Notes: generated from the sequence alone by a model not told the origin. A stretch of DNA of 64,000 nucleotides from Erysipelotrichaceae bacterium (GCA_017473265.1 JAFULQ010000026.1:1-64000); one strand, 5' to 3'; positions 6,661 to 56,302 are shown, counted from the first letter of the stretch. Numbers and translations: made by a program.

Positions 6661-7818
6661 AAATTGCTCCATAAAAATTTCAATTTTAGCTAATGCCATT
6701 TTAATTTCATCAATGCTATATGCATAAGAAATACGAATATACCCTTCACCTGCATTACCAAAGGCACTACCAGGTACACAAGCAACATTTTGCTCTTCTA
6801 ATAGTCTTTCACAGAATTCTAAAGAAGTAAGACCAGTATGCTTAATACATGGGAAAACATAGAACGCTCCCTCAGGCATATGTGTAGGCAAACCAATTTC
6901 ATTCAAACGACTTACTAATAAGTTACGTCTCTGTTTATATTGAACAATCATTTCATCGACATATTTTTGTCCGTTGCGTAAACCTTCAATAGCTCCATAT
7001 TGAGCAGCTGTTGGCGCTGACATTATAATGTATTGATGAATTTTCAACATTTGTTCTACAAAAATAGAATTGGCACATAAATATCCCAAACGCCATCCAG
7101 TCATCGCAAATGCTTTAGAAAAACCAGAAATTAAAACAACTAAATCACGAATTTCTGGGAATACCGCTGGTGAACAATGCTTACTAGAATAATTTAATTC
7201 CGCATAAATTTCATCACTAATTACAATTAAACGATGTTCTTTAATAATTGGAATTAATGGTTCATAATCTTCTTTATTCATAATTCCACCAGTTGGATTT
7301 GATGGGAAATTAATAATAATAGCCTTAGTTTTATCTGTAATCTTTTCTAATAACTCTTCCTTCGTTAATTTAAATTGATTCTCAGCCTTCAATTCAATAA
7401 ACACAGGAACACCACCAGCTAAACGAACAGCAGGCTCATACGCAACATATGCAGGCTCTAGAATAATTACTTCATCACCAGAATTAATTATTGCACGCAA
7501 AGCAATATCAATTGCTTCAGAACCACCAACTGTGATAATCATTTCTTTATTTGGACTATAATGTAAATCATAACGTTTACGTAAATAATGACTCAATTCC
7601 GTACGCAAAGACAATAAACCAGCATTCGCTGTATAATGCGTATGTTTCGCTTTAATAGAATAAATAGCAGATTCACACACATTCCAAGGAGTCGCAAAAT
7701 CCGGTTCACCAACCCCTAATGACAACACACCCTTTTTTGTATTCGCTAAATCAAAGAAACGACGAATACCACTAGGTTTAATCTCAACAACTGTTTTATT
7801 TAATAAATCTCTATACAT
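6646..7818 (-). CDS. Pyridoxal-phosphate aminotransferase, class I/II (PatA/aspartate aminotransferase-like)
   Basis: The 390-residue fold-type I aminotransferase has the PLP-lysine motif SGFSKAFAMTGWRLGY, substrate-side NFPSNPTGG and ISDEIYAEL, and the C-terminal arginine region EGYIRISYA. Family members transfer amino groups between amino acids such as aspartate or alanine and 2-oxo acids; the exact substrate is not readable. Its ATG overlaps the stop of the upstream Lrp-type regulator as TAATG, implying translational coupling, so the regulator probably controls an amino-acid pathway that includes this enzyme. Confidence 0.93.
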   Translation of the reverse strand: MYRDLLNKTVVEIKPSGIRRFFDLANTKKGVLSLGVGEPDFATPWNVCESAIYSIKAKHTHYTANAGLLSLRTELSHYLRKRYDLHYSPNKEMIITVGGSEAIDIALRAIINSGDEVIILEPAYVAYEPAVRLAGGVPVFIELKAENQFKLTKEELLEKITDKTKAIIINFPSNPTGGIMNKEDYEPLIPIIKEHRLIVISDEIYAELNYSSKHCSPAVFPEIRDLVVLISGFSKAFAMTGWRLGYLCANSIFVEQMLKIHQYIIMSAPTAAQYGAIEGLRNGQKYVDEMIVQYKQRRNLLVSRLNEIGLPTHMPEGAFYVFPCIKHTGLTSLEFCERLLEEQNVACVPGSAFGNAGEGYIRISYAYSIDEIKMALAKIEIFMEQFKKAN

Positions 7819-8306
7819 TAAATGCTCACCTGAATTCTATCGTCTTCTTCTTCATCTGTATCTGCGAAAATTACACCATTTTTCTTATATTGTTTTAAGA
7901 TGAAATTTGTACTAGTACCAGTTACCCCTTCAACAACCGCTAACTTACTACCAACAAAATTACTAATATCTTGCATAGTTCTTCCTTCCACGACAACTGA
8001 AAACTCAGTTTTACCACTCATTAAATACATAGTATCTACTTCAGGATATGCATAAATCATACTAGCGATACGGTCATAACCAAAATCACGCTCAGGCTGA
8101 CAAGTAACATCAATTACAGCAGTTACTCTATCAACATTCGCTTTATCCCAATTAATAATGGTATGGTAACCATTAATCACTTTATTCTTTTCAAGTTCAG
8201 TCAATGTACTCCAAACTGAAAATTCTGATTCTTGTAAAATTGCTGCTAAGTCTTTTATATCTCGCTTCGCATTTTTTTCAATTAATGCCAATAATTCTTT
8301 TTCCAT
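7818..8306 (-). CDS. Lrp/AsnC-family transcriptional regulator
   Basis: This 162-residue regulator has an N-terminal winged helix (LLALIEKNAKRDIKDLAAIL, EFSVWSTLTELEK) and a C-terminal RAM ligand-binding domain (VTAVIDVTCQPE..., GKTEFSVVVEGRTMQDI). Family members sense amino acids. GAGGTG precedes the ATG at 8306, and 22 further in-frame upstream residues are hydrophobic and lack a ribosome site. It is the first gene of a two-gene operon with the aminotransferase. Confidence 0.9.
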   Translation of the reverse strand: MEKELLALIEKNAKRDIKDLAAILQESEFSVWSTLTELEKNKVINGYHTIINWDKANVDRVTAVIDVTCQPERDFGYDRIASMIYAYPEVDTMYLMSGKTEFSVVVEGRTMQDISNFVGSKLAVVEGVTGTSTNFILKQYKKNGVIFADTDEEEDDRIQVSI

Positions 8307-17179: not shown

Positions 17180-17400
17180 TTTAAAATAAAAAACGCCCTA
17201 ATCTAAGGACGTTATAACGCGGTACCACCTTAGTTCATATAGAAATCTATATGCCCTCAACTCTTTTAACGCAAGATTACGATATAACTTACTACATTCA
17301 GTTATATAGCTCACAAGTGATGTCTACCTATATCTTCCTTGTTGAATTTCCACCAACCATCAACTCTCTAAAAATTCCAATATAGCAGCGCGTCTTGATC
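17180..17400 (-). promoter_or_regulatory. T-box leader with Ile (AUC) specifier upstream of ileS
   Basis: The canonical core AAGGTGGTACCGCG lies at about 17230-17217 (minus strand). Stem I carries an AGAGAGTTGATGG region and a specifier loop where AUC (17321-17319) precedes ACTTGTGAG, matching Ile. The terminator is AACGTCC / GGGCGTT with a TTAGATTA loop and a T run at 17191-17212. The specifier agrees with ileS. Confidence 0.95.
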
Positions 17401-17407
17401 AAAGCTT

Positions 17408-17911
17408 TTATTTTTCTAATTCCTTTTTCGCATCTACAAACGGAGCACGAGTTTCATCAGATAAATAATCTAAATTAGAAATTTCTGGAATTTGGAATGT
17501 TTCCATTAAAGCATCCATACTTTGTAATTTAGATTTAATATCCGTTCGCATCTCTTTTGTTTGTGAAGTCAAACGATTAATTTCAATAAAAACCATCTTC
17601 GCAGAACCTAATGCTTCTTTAATAATTAAGTCCGCATTCCCCTGCGCAGTTTCAATTATAACATTTGCTTCCTTTAATGCCAACCTCGAAATTTCTTCTG
17701 CAGCCTTTTCACGCATAGATAATTCATTAATTAACATTTGATAACGTTGTTTTAACATTAACAACTGCTCATTTGCACTCTTAATTTGGGTTTGATAACG
17801 TGTTATTTGTTCTTTAAGCATTTGATTTTCTTCTTTAAGATCATCAACTTCATCATTATATCGAAAACGTTCATAATTTTGACGTCTAGATAAAAAACGA
17901 CTATCTGACAT
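17408..17911 (-). CDS. divIVA: DivIVA-like cell division / polarity protein
   Basis: The 167-residue protein is mostly coiled coil (about residues 15-125, with heptads such as LKEENQMLKEQITRYQTQIK), as in DivIVA, which binds curved membrane at division sites and poles. The position after ylmH and before ileS is the classical divIVA locus, and this carries much of the call. The N-terminal segment is shorter and less conserved than the usual DivIVA membrane-binding head, so membrane binding is uncertain. GGGAGGGTAGTGTT precedes the start. Confidence 0.8.
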   Translation of the reverse strand: MSDSRFLSRRQNYERFRYNDEVDDLKEENQMLKEQITRYQTQIKSANEQLLMLKQRYQMLINELSMREKAAEEISRLALKEANVIIETAQGNADLIIKEALGSAKMVFIEINRLTSQTKEMRTDIKSKLQSMDALMETFQIPEISNLDYLSDETRAPFVDAKKELEK

Positions 17912-50522: not shown

Positions 50523-50551
50523 AATATACTCGTTTTCGACATTAAAGTCAA
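50523..50551 (-). promoter_or_regulatory. Promoter of glyS at the transposon edge
   Basis: On the minus strand TTGACT (50551-50546), a 17-bp spacer and TATATT (50528-50523). The -35 box lies wholly in the 9-bp duplicated target TAAAGTCAA, so the insertion left this promoter intact. Confidence 0.75.
50543..50551. repeat. Target-site duplication, left copy
   Basis: TAAAGTCAA directly abuts the left terminal inverted repeat, and the same 9 bp abut the right one at 56294-56302. Confidence 0.82.
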
Positions 50552-50572
50552 CTTCAATTCGTAAAGTAGAAT
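50552..50572 (+). repeat. Left terminal inverted repeat
   Basis: Starts CTTCAATTCGTAAAGTA and differs from the right end at position 18 only. It is itself the start of a palindrome (CTTCAATTC ... GAATTGAAG, 50552-50577). Confidence 0.8.
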
Positions 50573-50585
50573 TGAAGTGTTGACG

Positions 50586-50606
50586 CTTCAATTTGTAAAG
50601 TAGAAT
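50586..50606 (+). repeat. Subterminal copy of the terminal repeat
   Basis: CTTCAATTTGTAAAGTA plus GAAT matches the left terminal repeat at 20 of 21 positions, 34 bp further in, in direct orientation. This may be an additional transposase-binding site. Confidence 0.7.
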
Positions 50607-50635
50607 TTGTTGCATAAATTTGCCGCATTACGCAA

Positions 50636-50670
50636 AACAAAACTAGCAACAGAAATTATTGCTAGTTTTA
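50636..50670. terminator. Bidirectional hairpin near the left end
   Basis: AAAACTAGCAA / TTGCTAGTTTT (11 bp) with a 9-nt loop. It would end transcription of the leftward membrane-protein gene and shield glyS. Confidence 0.8.
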
Positions 50671-50710
50671 TTTTGCCAATGTTAATTATAATATGAAGTT
50701 AATATTCACG

Positions 50711-51361
50711 TTAAATTTCATAGTCATTTTTATTAATACCATTTCCTTCTTTTAGCCTTTCCCACACTTTAGAGCCTGTAGAATAAGCTAATTCAATATA
50801 CTCAATATCATTGAGATTAATAAGAATGGACGATGGGTAATCTGGTCGAAAAATAATATCATCATTTGCTTTTTTTATTTTTGCATAATCTATTAAAGCA
50901 ATATATGAATCTCGACCCTTTTCTTCTTTTAAACTAAATGTTCCTATATAATAGTAATCGTCTGCTTTTAAATAAAGTTTCATTATTGTTTTCTTTTCAT
51001 AATCAATAACGTCATCAAAAATATCAAAATGAATCGTTTGATGATTCATATGTAATAAAAACTTTCTAACTATTTTTGTTTTAGACAGATAAATAACGCC
51101 AAATGGAAGTAAGGCTCCCGTTACAACATATATCATCACTTTTGTATATTCGTAAAATATAAAATTAGTCAATATGTGGCTATGAATTATACTATATGTA
51201 ACTTTAATTAAATAACTAATAAACAAACTCCATAAACACATAATAGGTATATCTGATTGTTTATTAAGTAATTTATTGTAAATGCACATATAAATGAAGC
51301 CCGGTAAAAATAAATCCATCAATTCAGGAACAATTGAAATTAAATCTGTTAAAGCTTCCAT
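50711..51361 (-). CDS. Membrane protein of unknown function (possibly DUF6338-like)
   Basis: The 216-residue protein has an N-terminal LPGFIYMCIYNKLL segment and three predicted helices (about residues 15-30, 40-62 and 73-95), then a soluble domain of about 115 residues rich in beta-strand pattern and ending WERLKEGNGINKND. The LPGF start and layout recall DUF6338 proteins, but this is not certain. AAAGGAGAACAAGT precedes the ATG, 12 nt after the stop of a 45-residue gene; the two form a pair. Confidence 0.7.
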   Translation of the reverse strand: MEALTDLISIVPELMDLFLPGFIYMCIYNKLLNKQSDIPIMCLWSLFISYLIKVTYSIIHSHILTNFIFYEYTKVMIYVVTGALLPFGVIYLSKTKIVRKFLLHMNHQTIHFDIFDDVIDYEKKTIMKLYLKADDYYYIGTFSLKEEKGRDSYIALIDYAKIKKANDDIIFRPDYPSSILINLNDIEYIELAYSTGSKVWERLKEGNGINKNDYEI

Positions 51362-51373
51362 ACTTGTTCTCCT

Positions 51374-51511
51374 TTACTTGTTCTTCTTGTTATTATTATC
51401 ATTTTCTTTTTTAACTTTTAATATTTTCTCTATAGTTATGTCACCATTATTAGATCCTTGCTTTGAATGAATAAGAATATTATCGTTATATTTTTTATCT
51501 TTTGTTTCCAT
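51374..51511 (-). CDS. Small hydrophilic protein paired with the membrane protein
   Basis: The 45-residue product starts METKDKKYNDNILIHSKQGS and ends in a very polar Asn/Lys-rich tail (KKENDNNNKKNK). GAGGAGATTAATT precedes the ATG. Not recognised. Its tight coupling with the next gene suggests a shared task. Confidence 0.6.
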   Translation of the reverse strand: METKDKKYNDNILIHSKQGSNNGDITIEKILKVKKENDNNNKKNK

Positions 51512-51607
51512 AATTAATCTCCTCATAAACAGTTCTAATAATTATATATCACTAATTGACAAAATACTATCATAAAATTTAGAATAAATTTGCCATAATT
51601 TATTTTT

Positions 51608-51628
51608 CTCCTTTTCATTGAAAAGGAG
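51608..51628 (+). promoter_or_regulatory. Hairpin hiding the ribosome site of the basic peptide
   Basis: CTCCTTTTC (51608-51616) pairs perfectly with GAAAAGGAG (51620-51628) across a 3-nt loop. The right arm is most of the ribosome site AAAAGGAGGTG of the 20-residue peptide, so folding should block translation. Confidence 0.65.
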
Positions 51629-51639
51629 GTGTAACTAGC

Positions 51640-51702
51640 ATGGCTAAGATGAAAGTAAGAATCAAGGTCAAAGGGCGAGTTAAAGTTCGTACTCGACGCT
51701 AA
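51640..51702 (+). CDS. 20-residue highly basic peptide
   Basis: The peptide MAKMKVRIKVKGRVKVRTRR has ten Lys/Arg residues, alternating with Val/Ile, as in an amphipathic strand, and no acidic residue. AAAAGGAGGTG lies 10 nt before the ATG, and a strong terminator follows 12 nt after the stop, so the gene looks like a unit of its own. It might bind nucleic acid or membranes. It resembles no small protein I know. Confidence 0.6.
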   Translation: MAKMKVRIKVKGRVKVRTRR

Positions 51703-51714
51703 TTACAGTGGTAG

Positions 51715-51742
51715 AGGATGTCACCAGCATCCTCCTTTTTTT
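51715..51742 (+). terminator. Terminator of the basic-peptide gene
   Basis: GAGGATG / CATCCTC (7 bp) with a 7-nt loop, followed by seven T residues. Confidence 0.85.
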
Positions 51743-51811
51743 ATGACAGTATTTTGCGTAATGATGCTTGAGTTTGTGATAAAATTTTCTTAGAAAGTGA
51801 GGTGCTCATTA

Positions 51812-51988
51812 ATGCCAAATAATAAATTAATTAAAGATATTGAGAAAGCGGCAATTAATGTTGTAAAGAAAAAGGGTGTTGAAATCGAATGCCCAAATTG
51901 TAATAAAACTATTACTGTTAAGCCATCAACTAAACAATGCCCTAAATGTAAATGTAAGTTAAACATTAAACTTGAACGCCATCAATAA
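51812..51988 (+). CDS. Small zinc-ribbon protein
   Basis: The 58-residue protein has a basic N-terminal helix (LIKDIEKAAINVVKKKG) and two CxxC knuckles, ECPNCNKTI and QCPKCKCKL, forming a zinc ribbon. Such small proteins are common in phages and mobile elements; function unknown. GAGGTG is 7 nt before the ATG at 51812. The 3' end overlaps a convergent gene by 23 nt. Confidence 0.7.
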   Translation: MPNNKLIKDIEKAAINVVKKKGVEIECPNCNKTITVKPSTKQCPKCKCKLNIKLERHQ

Positions 51989-52121
51989 TCTCATATTCTA
52001 TTGTGGCTATTTCGTTTGCTAACGATTTAGCCTCTTTTAATAATTCGACTAATCTAGCAGCTTTTATAGAAGCTTCTTCTATACCAGTTATTTCAATCTC
52101 AATTACTTTTTTATCTTCCAT
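51966..52121 (-). CDS. Small acidic protein, unknown
   Basis: The 51-residue product starts MEDKKVIEIEITGIEEASIK and continues as a charged helix (AARLVELLKEAKSLANEIA), ending in a short strand. AGGAGG is 7 nt before the ATG at 52121. It resembles small phage-type proteins of unknown function and is convergent with the zinc-ribbon gene. Confidence 0.6.
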   Translation of the reverse strand: MEDKKVIEIEITGIEEASIKAARLVELLKEAKSLANEIATIEYEIIDGVQV

Positions 52122-52171
52122 TTCATTTCCTCCTATAAAAATAAAAAGCCAATCATAAGATTGACTCAAAA

Positions 52172-52190
52172 GGCTGCAAACAGCCCAAAA
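52172..52190 (-). terminator. Terminator of the transposase gene
   Basis: GGCTG / CAGCC around a TTTG loop with TTTT after it on the minus strand, just past the transposase stop. Confidence 0.7.
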
Positions 52191-52198
52191 TATTAATA

Positions 52199-53563
52199 TT
52201 ATTCAAAAAATTCCAACATATAATCTCTAACATCATTAGCACAACTATCTCTGAATTCCAAGAATTCTCTCATACTCATAATGCAGAAATACTCGCCGCT
52301 ATAAAGAACCAGATAATTTAAGAATGTTGTTTTATAGTTCTTTAATATCACAGGTAAGCATTTGCCAACATACTTCATACCATCCTCTGTATTTAAATAT
52401 AATTGATAAAACATATATCCCAGTAACACACAGACAAGATGGAAACTTATCACATGCAGTTTCGTACTTTTGAAATCTTCAAGTTTCCAGAAATCTTTCA
52501 GTTGTCTAAAATCTTCTTCAATTTTTGTACGAATATCATATATTTCAATAATTTCTTCTGCACTCTTATCAAAATCTGTAGTGGCAAATACAATATATGA
52601 TTGAGTTTCTTCAATCCATGAAACGCTAGTATTTAACTCTAATACGTGTTCAATTATATTTCCATCCCATAAACTATCTACTTTAGGAATATGATGGATC
52701 ATCTGATTTTTTCTGTTTGGATGAGGTCTCCAATTTTCATATATATTTGCTAGATCGATTGCCATGTTATATTCGGCCATATGTTGTCTTAGCGGAAAAT
52801 ATACTTCTATTTTTTTCACTTCTTTTAGATGCTTAATCATTTTTCTAGAAATATATCCTCTATCCATTATAAGAATGTCACCTTCTTTTAGATGTGGTGA
52901 ATTATAAATGATATCTTCACTTAATAAAATGTCATTTGTAGTAGCTGTACCAAATCTAACTTCTTCAATGATTCCAGTAGTTCCAAATAAACCTCTTAAT
53001 GTGGCAATTTTATATCCTCGCATTTTATCTCCTCTACGATCAATAGAAATAGAAGATTGTTCATAATTCTCGTTATCAAAATTTACTGCAATTTTGGTAC
53101 AGTCAATAATATGAATGGTAGGAGATATGCCAAGTTTCTTCATGATAGAACTTGCAATAGCATTATAACCATCAAATAATTCTAGAGCTGAATATTTACC
53201 AAGTAAGTGTCTAATCGTACCTTCGGTTAACCAACCACAATCATTATCAGAAGAAAATGCGTTATATCCAAGCTCAGCAAGTGTTCGATGATCTCTAATA
53301 GCAAAAGGTATATCAGTTAAACTAGTTTTAACTTTCATCTTTGCTGCAATAGCCAATGTCACAATGAAATTTAAAGGAATAAATGAATTATGTCTTCTTC
53401 TATCTTCAAAGCCATCGTTGATGCAATCTATAACTCCTACACGAAGCATAGAAAGAATGATGTCATCCACTAAGTTGCTATTACTTGCAACAATGCCATC
53501 TAGTAATTTATTTTGTATTTGCTTTTTCACTTTACTTTTGTCATTCTTGCAAATAGTCAACAT
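52199..53563 (-). CDS. IS4-family DDE transposase
   Basis: The 454-residue transposase has RNase H-fold residues: HIIDCTKIAV (first Asp), DILIMDRGYISRKMI (second Asp) and the Y-R-E-K signature in YDIRTKIEEDFRQLKDFWKLE (YxxRxxxExxxxxxK), which carries the catalytic Glu. The N-terminal part (residues 1-130) is the usual DNA-binding region. It appears intact. GGGAGG lies about 10 nt before the ATG, and a promoter (TTGACA, 17 bp, TACACT) precedes it on the minus strand. It may be its own insertion sequence or the transposase of the larger unit. Confidence 0.92.
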   Translation of the reverse strand: MLTICKNDKSKVKKQIQNKLLDGIVASNSNLVDDIILSMLRVGVIDCINDGFEDRRRHNSFIPLNFIVTLAIAAKMKVKTSLTDIPFAIRDHRTLAELGYNAFSSDNDCGWLTEGTIRHLLGKYSALELFDGYNAIASSIMKKLGISPTIHIIDCTKIAVNFDNENYEQSSISIDRRGDKMRGYKIATLRGLFGTTGIIEEVRFGTATTNDILLSEDIIYNSPHLKEGDILIMDRGYISRKMIKHLKEVKKIEVYFPLRQHMAEYNMAIDLANIYENWRPHPNRKNQMIHHIPKVDSLWDGNIIEHVLELNTSVSWIEETQSYIVFATTDFDKSAEEIIEIYDIRTKIEEDFRQLKDFWKLEDFKSTKLHVISFHLVCVLLGYMFYQLYLNTEDGMKYVGKCLPVILKNYKTTFLNYLVLYSGEYFCIMSMREFLEFRDSCANDVRDYMLEFFE

Positions 53564-53645
53564 ATGGTGGTGTCCTCCCTACACCCACAGTGTAGATGAA
53601 TTACCACAATTTGTCAAGAGTTTATCCACAATTAGCTCATTTTCT

Positions 53646-53674
53646 TTGACACAATGAGTGGAATATGCTAAAAT
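53646..53674 (+). promoter_or_regulatory. Promoter of the XRE regulator
   Basis: A perfect TTGACA (53646-53651), a 17-bp spacer and TAAAAT (53669-53674). The inverted pair CTCATT ... AATGAG around the -35 box could be an operator. Confidence 0.7.
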
Positions 53675-53698
53675 TTGTTCAAGAAAAGGAGAATCCTT

Positions 53699-54031
53699 AT
53701 GAACGCACAACAATTTATTGGAGAACAAATTAAAAATCTACGCATACAACACAAAATGAGCCAAGCAGAGTTGGCTAGAAAACTTAATGTAAGTGATTCT
53801 ATTATTTCAGGTTATGAAAGAGGTGTTAGAACTCCATCTATAGAAGTTTTACTTAATTTAAAAGATACATTCGGTGTATCTCTTGATTACTTTATTACTG
53901 ATGAAATAGAGAAACATGCTCGATTAATGGTTGATCTTACAGATTTAACAGATGATCAATTTATGATAATTGCAAAATTAATTGATCAATTCAGCAAATA
54001 TAACGAATTAACTAAAAAGGAGAACGATTAG
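53699..54031 (+). CDS. XRE-family helix-turn-helix regulator
   Basis: The 110-residue repressor-like protein has an N-terminal HTH_3 domain (IGEQIKNLRIQHKMSQAELARKL, VSDSIISGYERGVRTPSIEVLLNLKD, FGVSLDYF) and a short acidic/helical C-terminal part. Such proteins often control phage or transposon genes, including their own. AAAAGGAGAATCCTT precedes the ATG at 53699. It converges with the ribbon-helix-helix gene, with a 4-nt overlap. Confidence 0.9.
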   Translation: MNAQQFIGEQIKNLRIQHKMSQAELARKLNVSDSIISGYERGVRTPSIEVLLNLKDTFGVSLDYFITDEIEKHARLMVDLTDLTDDQFMIIAKLIDQFSKYNELTKKEND

Positions 54032-54041
54032 TTCTCTTTTT
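54014..54041. terminator. Convergent terminator between XRE and RHH genes
   Basis: GAGAAC / GTTCTC flanked by A and T runs on both sides, lying over the two overlapping stops. Confidence 0.7.
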
Positions 54042-54204
54042 CTTCGTCCTCCATATCATCTAATGCATAATTAATACACATGACAATTAATTTGTTAAGC
54101 GATACATTTTTCTTATCACAAATTTTTTCTAATCTTTCTACTAATTTCTTTTCTAAACGAAATGTTTTATTAACATATTCTTCCCGTTCTACTTTAAATG
54201 CCAT
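54028..54204 (-). CDS. Ribbon-helix-helix-like DNA-binding protein
   Basis: The 58-residue protein has the Arc/CopG pattern: a strand (EEYVNKTFRLEKKLVERLEKI) then two helices (CDKKNVSLNKLIVMCINYALDD) and an acidic tail. Single-domain members are small repressors, often of mobile elements or toxin-antitoxin loci. GAGGTGG lies 5 nt before the ATG at 54204. Four ACACTT-like repeats lie upstream, one over the promoter of the divergent lipoprotein gene. Confidence 0.75.
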   Translation of the reverse strand: MAFKVEREEYVNKTFRLEKKLVERLEKICDKKNVSLNKLIVMCINYALDDMEDEEKEN

Positions 54205-54221
54205 AATTTCCACCTCATTGT

Positions 54222-54288
54222 TTACACTTTAATAATATTGGAAATTAAATTTGTATTATACACTTAATATCTAGTGTAATATACACTT
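54222..54288. promoter_or_regulatory. Cluster of ACACTT repeats, candidate operator
   Basis: TTACACTT (54222-54229), ATACACTT (54258-54265), inverted AGTGTAAT (54273-54280) and ATACACTT (54281-54288) lie in the divergent region between the RHH gene and the first lipoprotein gene. Such clustered half-sites suit an RHH repressor. Confidence 0.55.
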
Positions 54289-54315
54289 GAAAATAAGATG
54301 CACGAATTGTAAAAT
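54287..54315 (+). promoter_or_regulatory. Promoter of the lipoprotein genes
   Basis: TTGAAA (54287-54292), a 17-bp spacer and TAAAAT (54310-54315); the last ACACTT repeat touches the -35 box. Confidence 0.65.
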
Positions 54316-54341
54316 ATTGGTAAGAAAGAAGGCGAAATTAT

Positions 54342-54545
54342 ATGAAAAAATATTTGATTATTTTTGCTATTTTATTAGGATTGTTCCTCATTGGTAGTTG
54401 CGAAGATAATGAACACAGCAGCGTTAGATGTGGCATCTGTGGTAGAGAATACCAAGCAGGAGATGCCGGTGGTAATTTTATGAATATCACATGGAGTGGT
54501 TTTTGTAAATCATGTGAAAAAGGCTATCACTCATTAAATCAATAA
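54342..54545 (+). CDS. Small lipoprotein with zinc-ribbon-like cysteines
   Basis: The 67-residue product has a hydrophobic signal (YLIIFAILLGLFL) and lipobox LIGSC, so it should be lipidated at Cys20, then CGICGREY and CKSCEKGY, two CxxC pairs like a small zinc-binding or redox module outside the cell. No family recognised. GAAGGCGAAATTAT precedes the ATG. It is cotranscribed with the next lipoprotein (16-nt gap). Confidence 0.68.
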   Translation: MKKYLIIFAILLGLFLIGSCEDNEHSSVRCGICGREYQAGDAGGNFMNITWSGFCKSCEKGYHSLNQ

Positions 54546-54561
54546 ATCAAGGAGAACGTTT

Positions 54562-55194
54562 ATGAGAAAAATTTTAACATTAATTATCATTGCATTAATA
54601 GTAAGTGCATGTGGTGCAACTAATTATAAAAATAATTTAGCAGAAGTATATCCGGCTTACGCAGAAGATATCAATGAAATTCTAACAAATGACGATGCAA
54701 AGTTATGCTATGACATTTATCAAGAAAATAGCACACTATCTTTTTTAGAATTATGTGAAAAAATGGTTTTAGAAAGCAACAATACTCCTAGTCTTACGAA
54801 AAATTCACTAAATTATCTAAAAAAGGAATATAATTTAACAAATGTGGTTTTCACTAGATTGGAAGATAGTAATTTGCCAGTTCTTTTCTACGATATTTAT
54901 AGTAGTGGAAAAGATACAAAAGTTAATCTGATGTATTTTTACAATGATATAAGCAAGACTTTTGACAAAATGATTGTCGCACTAGATCATGAGGATGTGA
55001 CAGAAAAAAGTAGTATGCAATTCTATTTCGTTTGCTTAGAAGCAATGATGTCCGTTGATGCTTCATTCGAAAATAATGTTCAATTAGCCAACGACATTGT
55101 TGGTGAAGCTTTTGATAGAGAACAATCACACAATGGTTTTACATATAGCGTAGTTGAAAGCGATTCTAGTGTAGGCTTTGTTATTTCAAAATAA
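54562..55194 (+). CDS. Lipoprotein of unknown function
   Basis: The 210-residue product has a signal peptide with lipobox LIVSAC (Cys17) and a mixed soluble domain without recognised motifs; there are no further membrane helices. AAGGAGAACGTTT precedes the ATG. It follows the small lipoprotein in the same operon, and a terminator follows the stop. It may be an element-encoded surface protein, for example in exclusion or adhesion, but this is speculation. Confidence 0.72.
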   Translation: MRKILTLIIIALIVSACGATNYKNNLAEVYPAYAEDINEILTNDDAKLCYDIYQENSTLSFLELCEKMVLESNNTPSLTKNSLNYLKKEYNLTNVVFTRLEDSNLPVLFYDIYSSGKDTKVNLMYFYNDISKTFDKMIVALDHEDVTEKSSMQFYFVCLEAMMSVDASFENNVQLANDIVGEAFDREQSHNGFTYSVVESDSSVGFVISK

Positions 55195-55200
55195 TATATA

Positions 55201-55230
55201 AATAGGGCTATGATGTAGCTCTATTTTTTA
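55201..55230 (+). terminator. Terminator of the lipoprotein operon
   Basis: AATAGGGCTA / TAGCTCTATT (one G-U pair) with a 5-nt loop and TTTTT. Confidence 0.8.
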
Positions 55231-55312
55231 CAAAAATACAATAAAATAACTTTGATTATTTCTTGAAAAGTGTCTACATATGTTATTATTTAGTAAAGAA
55301 AGGAGAGAGACA

Positions 55313-55561
55313 ATGGATGTAAGCAATACAATCAAACAATGTGAAGAATGTAAAGCTATCGGAGAAATCCACTTTAATGGAGGTAAACCAATTAGCTTAT
55401 ATAATCTATTTAGCATTGACAACTATTCTTTTAATAATCCAAGCATTAAAGATTTAGAAGAATATTTTAATCAATACTCAAAAAAGTTTGTAACATTAAC
55501 AACAAGATATGAGAAGCATCTTATTAATGTAAATAGCATTACACACATTACATTAAAATAA
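55313..55561 (+). CDS. Small protein, possibly LytTR-like at its C-terminus
   Basis: The 82-residue product starts MDVSNTIKQCEECKAIGEIH and ends with a strand-rich segment (KKFVTLTTRYEKHLINVNSITHITL) that recalls the end of a LytTR DNA-binding domain, but is too short to be one. An N-terminal CEEC pair might bind metal. AAAGGAG precedes the ATG at 55313. Not recognised; convergent with a 45-residue gene. Confidence 0.6.
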   Translation: MDVSNTIKQCEECKAIGEIHFNGGKPISLYNLFSIDNYSFNNPSIKDLEEYFNQYSKKFVTLTTRYEKHLINVNSITHITLK

Positions 55562-55567
55562 CTACTT

Positions 55568-55705
55568 CTACAATGTTTTAATTAAGATTTTTGCGATATC
55601 AAGTATTTTTTCTACTTGTATGCCGTGAAAGTCTTTTTTTATTTCTTCAACAATTTGAACAGCTTTTTCAGCGATTTCTTTATCAGACTTATACATTGAT
55701 CCCAT
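55568..55705 (-). CDS. Small helical protein, unknown
   Basis: The 45-residue product starts MGSMYKSDKEIAEKAVQIVE and appears to be a single amphipathic helix (EEIKKDFHGI, VEKILDIAKILIKTL). A strong AAGGAGGAATAAAA precedes the ATG. No known family. It lies between the 82-residue gene and the structured-RNA promoter. Confidence 0.6.
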   Translation of the reverse strand: MGSMYKSDKEIAEKAVQIVEEIKKDFHGIQVEKILDIAKILIKTL

Positions 55706-55771
55706 TTTTATTCCTCCTTATAATAAATGTAAGTTTACAAAATGATGTTTTAAGAAAACATCCAATAATAT

Positions 55772-55800
55772 TTGACATCACTAATATTACCTAATATAAT
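55772..55800 (+). promoter_or_regulatory. Perfect-consensus promoter of the structured RNA
   Basis: TTGACA (55772-55777), exactly 17 bp, then TATAAT (55795-55800). No other promoter in the window matches the consensus at all twelve positions. The transcript should start near 55807. Confidence 0.85.
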
Positions 55801-55896
55801 TACCCATGCCCACATTTGGGAGAAAGGAGCTGTGATTATGTTAAAAGCAGTTTTGAGTAACCCTGTCTCTGAAGAAATGATGATGCATGGGTAATT
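55798..55896. repeat. 12-bp inverted repeat at the promoter of the RNA
   Basis: AATTACCCATGC (55798-55809) spans the predicted transcription start and its perfect reverse complement lies at 55885-55896. It might be an operator or a DNA-looping site; only its last bases could pair in the transcript. Confidence 0.6.
55838..55894 (+). CDS. 18-codon open frame at the 5' end of the structured RNA
   Basis: MLKAVLSNPVSEEMMMHG is preceded by GAAAGGAG at an 8-nt distance. It may be a leader peptide whose translation influences folding, or a chance frame in an RNA. It is too short to judge from composition. Confidence 0.4.
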   Translation: MLKAVLSNPVSEEMMMHG

Positions 55897-56090
55897 TATA
55901 TTGCAGAACCCCACTGCTAAAGTGAAGTCGCCTTAGGTAAGATACGATGCGCATCCATCTATTTATATTATAGCGATAAATCGTAGCTACGCGTTCCAGA
56001 GGATGACAAGGATTAAAGTGTAGGGCTGGAACTGCACTTGCTATAATATAAGTTGCACTAATGGTTCAGAGAAAACAAATATAGGGAAAA

Positions 56091-56130
56091 GAGTTTCCAA
56101 TGTGATGTGCGTGGAAACCTTTTTATTTTC
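56091..56130 (+). terminator. Terminator of the structured RNA
   Basis: GTTTCCA (56093-56099) / TGGAAAC (56112-56118) with a 12-nt loop, followed by CTTTTTATTTT. Confidence 0.85.
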
Positions 56131-56272
56131 TCCAAAATATAATTAATGAAAATTTTTGAAACCTTTTTATGAAAATTCTAGAAAATGATAGAATTTATAT
56201 ATTAAATGGCATTATTTATCCTATAATGAAGTCAAAATAATGCAAATTTCATAAAAATGCATAAAAACCGTT
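56131..56272. other. Gene-free AT-rich stretch at the right end of the transposon
   Basis: No open frame with a ribosome site is seen on either strand. It contains several TGCAAA/TGCATAAA-like words that might be subterminal binding sites, but no clear copy of the terminal repeat. Confidence 0.5.
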
Positions 56273-56293
56273 ATTTTACTTTACGAATTGAAG
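56273..56293 (-). repeat. Right terminal inverted repeat
   Basis: Read inward on the minus strand it begins CTTCAATTCGTAAAGTA; 20 of 21 bases match the left end. Confidence 0.8.
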
Positions 56294-56302
56294 TAAAGTC
56301 AA
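56294..56302. repeat. Target-site duplication, right copy
   Basis: TAAAGTCAA directly adjoins the right terminal repeat, identical to 50543-50551. Confidence 0.82.

What the first reader, a model, noticed from the sequence alone, without database searches (positions are those of the whole stretch)
50543..56302. A cleanly bounded 5.74-kb transposon with cargo, inserted between recO and glyS
The sequence shows 21-bp inverted ends with one mismatch and the identical 9 bp TAAAGTCAA touching both outer edges. Together with the broken recO-glyS neighbourhood this is what a transposition event leaves. The cargo is mostly unknown small proteins, regulators and an RNA. I do not recognise these ends. 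If the internal IS4-type protein moves the whole unit, this would be an IS4-related element carrying passenger genes, which is unusual.
Basis: partly seen in the sequence, partly recalled or inferred. Interest (0 to 1): 0.8.

Follow-up and report, generated by a model that had tools for sequence, protein, structure and literature searches.

The report
IS4-related jumping element with passenger genes
A 5.7-kb piece of mobile DNA inserted itself cleanly between two housekeeping genes of a gut bacterium and carries about ten small passenger genes; relatives with the same ends and mover gene but different passengers occur, one copy per genome, across gut bacteria of several groups, so this is a little-described family of cargo-carrying insertion sequences.

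Summary
A 5,742-bp element (50552-56293) has 21-bp inverted ends (one mismatch), flanked on both sides by TAAAGTCAA. A same-genus genome, G003, holds the empty recO-glyS junction with a single TAAAGTCAA at 98-99% identity.

Relatives of it (42-64% identity over the best segment) sit inside elements with the same ends (consensus CTTCAATTCGYAAAGTA) and their own 8-11-bp duplications in 12 other loci from Erysipelotrichales, other Bacilli, Clostridia and a gastranaerophile. The smallest have transposase alone or transposase plus a divergent XRE regulator. Nine, this one included, carry further, mostly unrelated genes. Transposases have IS4 DDE and YREK signatures but fall below every NCBIfam cut-off. 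Ends match no IS4 subgroup signature clearly.

Verdict: an IS4-related 'transporter IS', a lineage apart from IS231, the only IS4 subgroup with passengers known in 2008 (PMC2266710). New variant of a known kind. Extras: a below-threshold FuFi-1 RNA match, and a 20-aa cationic peptide cassette shared with two other elements.

The parts
50543..50551 (.). target site duplication TAAAGTCAA, left copy
   Evidence: single copy in the empty site of G003
50552..50572 (+). left terminal inverted repeat CTTCAATTCGTAAAGTAGAAT
   Evidence: matches the consensus of 22 ends
50586..50607 (+). second, internal copy of the left-end motif, 34 bp in
50711..51361 (-). 216-aa putative membrane protein, no family, no clear relatives
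51374..51511 (-). 45-aa small ORF with ribosome-binding site
51556..51734 (+). peptide cassette: promoter TTGACA-18-TAGAAT (51556-51585), hairpin covering the ribosome-binding site plus GCCAU/AUGGC pairing with the start codon, 20-aa peptide MAKMKVRIKVKGRVKVRTRR starting at 51640, intrinsic terminator 51714-51734; shared with the elements in L045 and L046
51812..51988 (+). 58-aa zinc-ribbon protein (PHROG 9188, unknown function)
51966..52121 (-). 51-aa protein (PHROG 19236, unknown function)
52199..53563 (-). IS4-type DDE transposase, 454 aa, intact; D154 D234 E349, Y342 R345 E349 K356
53589..53674 (.). back-to-back promoters of transposase (53617-53589, -) and XRE gene (53646-53674, +)
   Evidence: consensus match only
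53699..54031 (+). 110-aa XRE-type regulator, divergent from the transposase; homologues in the same place in other elements
54028..54204 (-). 58-aa ribbon-helix-helix (Arc-like) protein; 74% identical in the Thomasclavelia element
54342..54545 (+). 67-aa small protein with lipoprotein-like start and Cys pairs
54562..55194 (+). 210-aa predicted lipoprotein, no relatives found
55313..55561 (+). 82-aa unknown protein
55568..55705 (-). 45-aa small ORF with ribosome-binding site
55772..56124 (+). RNA gene: perfect promoter TTGACA-17-TATAAT at 55772-55800, 18-codon ORF at about 55840, then a FuFi-1-like RNA 55881-56124 ending in a hairpin and T run
56273..56293 (-). right terminal inverted repeat CTTCAATTCGTAAAGTAAAAT
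56294..56302 (.). target site duplication TAAAGTCAA, right copy

Best explanation
The stretch is one transposable unit of an IS4-related lineage. Its own 454-aa DDE transposase recognises the CTTCAATTCGYAAAGTA ends, cuts the whole 5.74-kb unit out, and joins it to a target cut with a stagger of about 9 bp, which repair turns into the flanking 9-bp repeats. The divergent XRE protein probably represses transposase expression and helps keep copy number at one. The other ten or so genes and the RNA are passengers, a 'transporter IS' arrangement. Shown: ends, duplication, empty site, and conserved linkage of ends, transposase and XRE over many loci. Inferred: catalysis by this protein, cut-and-paste chemistry as in other IS4 elements, and XRE repression.
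For: Ends and 9-bp duplication; empty site. A 2,093-bp relative in G034 with the same ends, 9-bp duplication TTGCTATAA, and only transposase and XRE. Eleven more elements with the same kind of ends, transposase or its remnants inside, and 8-11-bp duplications. IS4 signatures D154-(79)-D234-(114)-E349 and Y-2-R-3-E-6-K, invariant in 13 transposases. XRE next to and divergent from the transposase in nine loci, homologous to each other. Transposase tree does not follow host phyla: the gastranaerophile copy nests among Firmicutes copies. Element G+C differs from host: 41% vs 61% in L050, 27% vs 40% in L044.
Against: No movement has been seen. Only one copy exists in this genome. The transposase scores below all NCBIfam cut-offs, and the predicted structure was too weak in the catalytic core to find the Tn5 fold. 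One empty site was examined, in a different species of the genus.
Confidence: 0.93

Rival explanations
1. The transposase belongs to an ordinary insertion sequence nested inside a different, larger transposon whose own mover is absent or elsewhere.
For: IS nesting is common; the transposase gene occupies only a quarter of the unit.
Against: In the 2.1-kb G034 relative the same ends immediately enclose transposase plus XRE; the end motif goes with this transposase in 13 loci; no second transposase or recombinase lies in the unit; the scans reported no inverted-repeat pair with target duplication bracketing the transposase alone that comes near the outer pair.
Confidence: 0.03
2. A non-autonomous cassette (mobile insertion cassette) moved in trans by a relative.
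For: Such cassettes exist for IS231 (PMC2266710); in Dielma a 1.2-kb pair of similar ends without transposase exists (L029 9657-10862).
Against: This unit has an intact 454-aa transposase with all signature residues; the genome holds no other copy.
Confidence: 0.03
3. Remnant of a composite transposon: the doubled left end (50552 and 50586) would be the trace of a second, lost copy that captured the DNA between.
For: Second end motif 34 bp inside the left end.
Against: No second transposase, no second right end; other cargo-bearing elements have single ends. It could explain how cargo was gained, not what the unit is now.
Confidence: 0.05

Closest known systems
IS231 / MIC231 elements (IS4 family, Bacillus cereus group)
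   Same: IS4-type DDE transposase with YREK, about one helix turn of target duplication, size range up to 5.4 kb because of passenger genes (PMC2266710)
   Different: IS231 ends begin CAT and duplications are 10-12 bp; its extra DNA lies between the left end and the transposase. Here ends begin CTTCAATTCG, duplications are 8-11 bp, cargo lies on both sides, a divergent XRE gene accompanies the transposase, and hosts are mostly gut Firmicutes
Transporter IS (tIS) as a class
   Same: an IS with its own transposase plus passenger genes unrelated to transposition (PMC3129680; PMC9330008)
   Different: tIS is a descriptive class, not a lineage; here a whole transposase lineage carries cargo in most intact members
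IS10, IS50 and ISPepr1 subgroups of IS4
   Same: 5'-CT ends and 7-9-bp duplications (PMC2266710)
   Different: conserved internal end positions of ISPepr1 and IS50 are not met; listed sizes are 1.2-1.6 kb without cargo
FuFi-1 RNA (Rfam RF02986)
   Same: 55881-56124 aligns over the whole model, E 3.5e-7
   Different: 43.7 bits, below the gathering score of 59.6; a long insertion in one hairpin

Membership tests
IS4 family (De Palmenaer et al. 2008, PMC2266710) | DDE with spacers D(60-110)D(100-150)E | tested here: met
   D154, D234, E349; spacers 79 and 114 residues; invariant in 13 relatives
IS4 family (De Palmenaer et al. 2008, PMC2266710) | Y(2)R(3)E(6)K motif | tested here: met
   Y342 R345 E349 K356, invariant in 13 relatives
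IS4 family (De Palmenaer et al. 2008, PMC2266710) | transposase from a single ORF | tested here: met
   454-aa ORF, 52199-53563
IS4 family (De Palmenaer et al. 2008, PMC2266710) | target duplication of about 10 bp (7-13 over subgroups) | tested here: met
   9 bp here; 8-11 bp in relatives
NCBIfam IS4 models (NF033592, NF033591, NF049925) | score above curated cut-off | tested here: not met
   best NF033592, 75.2 bits against 115; all eight relatives tested also below
IS231 subgroup | ends CAT-------AA--TAA and 10-12-bp duplications | tested here: not met
   ends CTTCAATTCG, 9-bp duplication
ISPepr1 subgroup | ends YT-AA-YTT---A, 7-8-bp duplications | tested here: not met
   position 4 is C in all 22 ends examined
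IS50 subgroup | ends CW------Y---CA-A--W- | tested here: not met
   position 13 is A in 20 of 22 ends, not C
IS10 subgroup | ends CT, 9-bp duplication, transposase clusters with IS10 | tested here: inconclusive
   CT and 9 bp fit, but two bases are weak evidence; no IS10 transposase compared
Transporter IS (tIS) | own transposase plus passenger genes inside one pair of ends | tested here: met
Mobile insertion cassette (MIC) | IS ends with cargo but no transposase | tested here: not met
   intact transposase present
FuFi-1 RNA (RF02986) | score above Rfam gathering score | tested here: not met
   43.7 against 59.6 bits

The most novel reading that the evidence does not exclude
A distinct IS4-related subgroup whose members are, as a rule, single-copy cargo carriers with a built-in XRE control gene and fast cargo turnover, spreading between phyla in the gut; and some members share a 20-aa alternating cationic/hydrophobic peptide with an RNA-occluded start site that acts as a toxin-like maintenance or antimicrobial gene of the element.
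Probability: 0.25. Interest if true: 0.7.

Novelty: new variant of a known kind. Interest (0 to 1): 0.52.

Why it matters
In 2008 passenger DNA inside single IS4-family elements was reported only for IS231 (PMC2266710), with the remark that nobody had looked systematically elsewhere. These data show a second, separate IS4-related lineage in which cargo is the rule among intact members, in hosts from Erysipelotrichales, other Bacilli, Clostridia and a gastranaerophile. It gives defined ends, an empty site and minimal cores, so the question of how a simple insertion sequence gains and swaps cargo becomes testable. The cargo is a source of unstudied small proteins and RNAs of gut bacteria.

Tried and rejected
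Scan of viral contigs and tblastn of phages and plasmids with the transposase: no relatives. Searches for relatives of the 210-aa lipoprotein and the 216-aa membrane protein in phages, viral contigs and related genomes: nothing convincing. PADLOC: only generic HTH matches and marginal hits of the zinc ribbon, so no defence system is claimed. AlphaFold2 model of the transposase had much of its catalytic core below pLDDT 50 and Foldseek gave no significant match: uninformative, not evidence against. Peptide pattern hits in G001 and G005 lie inside a 185-186-aa ORF that reads as elongation factor P and were discarded. Several single end-motif hits with two mismatches in related genomes sit in no recognised element and look like chance. 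The end pair in L030 has no target duplication and was not counted. A FuFi-1-like match in L062 overlaps a coding gene at 29 bits and was discarded.

Full report
OBSERVATION. The unit spans 50552-56293 (5,742 bp). Its ends are 21-bp inverted repeats with one mismatch, and TAAAGTCAA touches both outer edges. No first-order Markov randomisation of the window (20 tried) gave a 9-bp direct repeat joined to an inverted repeat of at least 18/20 within 10 kb; the window has exactly one such pair, this one. Genome G003, of the same genus, matches both flanks at 98-99% and joins them at a single TAAAGTCAA. G003 has no match to the transposase. The duplication is therefore a real target duplication and the insertion is absent from a relative.

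DO THE ENDS BELONG TO THE INTERNAL TRANSPOSASE? Genome G034, another family of the same order, has a 2,093-bp element (L031 156-2248) with ends CTTCAATTCGTAAAG and a 9-bp duplication TTGCTATAA. It contains only a broken relative of the window transposase (about 45% identity) and a divergent XRE gene (37% identity to the one here). A search of one genome per species for relatives of the transposase returned 17 loci. Searching around each for direct repeats that abut inverted ends, with no end sequence given, recovered the same end motif. The results were: Thomasclavelia 4,222 bp, 10-bp duplication; Dielma fastidiosa 5,004 bp, 9; a roe-deer gut Clostridia genome 5,218 bp, 10; a Bacilli genome 5,852 bp, 10; a gastranaerophile 4,003 bp, 8; Pseudoflavonifractor gallinarum 3,631 bp, 8; another Bacilli genome 2,833 bp, 8; an uncultured Clostridium 3,324 bp, 8 (found by the end motif); a 1,470-bp element with a broken transposase and no cargo in Vallitaleaceae, 10, whose ends share CTTCAAT and then diverge; and two decayed copies of about 1 kb. 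Over the 22 ends compared (Vallitaleaceae and the uncultured Clostridium left out) the consensus is CTTCAATTCGYAAAGTA, with positions 2, 4, 6-10 and 12 invariant. Each of the eight genomes searched whole held a single locus, or in Sporomusa only scattered fragments.

CORE AND CARGO. The XRE gene lies next to the transposase and diverges from it in nine loci, the window included, and the proteins are homologous (the L042 copy is the same contig as L052). I take it as part of the core and, by its position over back-to-back promoters, as a likely repressor; that is inference. The rest is cargo and differs almost completely between elements. The ribbon-helix-helix protein is shared with the Thomasclavelia element at 74% identity, and a zinc-ribbon protein is shared between the Thomasclavelia and one Bacilli element. 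Recurrent types are predicted lipoproteins, small zinc-ribbon proteins and small HTH proteins. The gastranaerophile element contains a piece of a phage baseplate-type protein (Pfam Gp10_C). Cargo lies on both sides of the transposase. No resistance gene and no recognised defence system was found in the window element. In the Dielma element about 0.8 kb next to the transposase is masked and could not be read.

FAMILY. The transposase meets the hallmarks of the IS4 family as set out by De Palmenaer and colleagues (PMC2266710): D154, D234 and E349 with spacers of 79 and 114 residues, the YREK motif, a single ORF and duplications of about one helix turn. It does not reach the NCBIfam IS4 cut-offs, nor do its relatives. 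The ends do not fit the IS231, IS50 or ISPepr1 signatures; IS10 cannot be excluded on two bases. A new subgroup is likely but was not tested against ISfinder. A tree of 13 transposases puts the window copy with Thomasclavelia (97/95) and then Dielma (100/99), and places the gastranaerophile copy among Firmicutes copies. With the G+C contrasts this indicates transfer between distant hosts.

TWO SMALL EXPRESSED-LOOKING UNITS. First, 55881-56124 matches the FuFi-1 RNA family at E 3.5e-7 but below its gathering score; a perfect sigma-70 promoter lies at 55772-55800, and an 18-codon ORF with a ribosome-binding site precedes the match. Its free energy is not exceptional against shuffles (z -1.2). 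Second, the 20-aa peptide MAKMKVRIKVKGRVKVRTRR has counterparts in two other elements, MAKRRIRIKVKGTVKIRIRRH in L046 and MAKRKIKIEVKVTAKVRIRRR in L045. All three have a TTGACA promoter, an upstream TTGCCATAAT, a pyrimidine-rich segment facing the ribosome-binding site, and a terminator-like hairpin after the stop. In the window the fold buries the ribosome-binding site in a 10-bp hairpin and pairs GCCAU with AUGGC at the start codon (z -2.3); in L045 and L046 the ribosome-binding site is paired too, but those folds are less exceptional (z -1.9 and -1.1). No such peptide turned up in phages, plasmids or viral contigs, nor elsewhere in 60 genomes apart from two chance hits inside what reads as the elongation factor P gene. 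An occluded start and a cationic alternating peptide suggest a product the cell guards against, but this rests on three sequences and no experiment.

VERDICT. The kind of thing is known (IS with passengers; IS231 is the precedent); the lineage and its consistency are what is new here.

Noticed in passing
window 51556-51734; L046 about 7640-7870 (-); L045 about 7580-7800 (-): Conserved cassette for a 20-21-aa cationic peptide with promoter, hairpin over the ribosome-binding site and terminator, found only inside three of these elements.
   Followed up: partly
window 51560-51577 and 51739-51756: 18-nt inverted repeat (94%) bracketing the peptide cassette; not looked for in the other two elements.
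   Followed up: no
window 55772-56124: FuFi-1-like RNA with a perfect promoter and an 18-codon ORF ahead of it; in relative G009 an above-threshold FuFi-1 (L060 1501-1671) lies among XRE, ImmA-like and zinc-ribbon genes, a mobile-element-like setting.
   Followed up: partly
L029 9657-10862 (Dielma fastidiosa): 1.2-kb pair of similar ends with no transposase and near-matching 10-bp flanks (TCCAATATTA/TCCTATATTA): possible non-autonomous derivative in a genome with a full element.
   Followed up: partly
L028 1513 onwards: Single left-type end followed by a 126-aa protein weakly resembling PemK/MazF toxins (E 0.0097, below cut-off); no partner end found.
   Followed up: partly
L048 3014-3522 and L053 10643-13605: Two elements share an 85%-identical 78-aa HTH protein next to phage-tail-like genes or fragments, as if both had taken up phage DNA.
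   Followed up: no
window 17202-17411 (-): T-box leader (127.7 bits), unrelated to the element.
   Followed up: no
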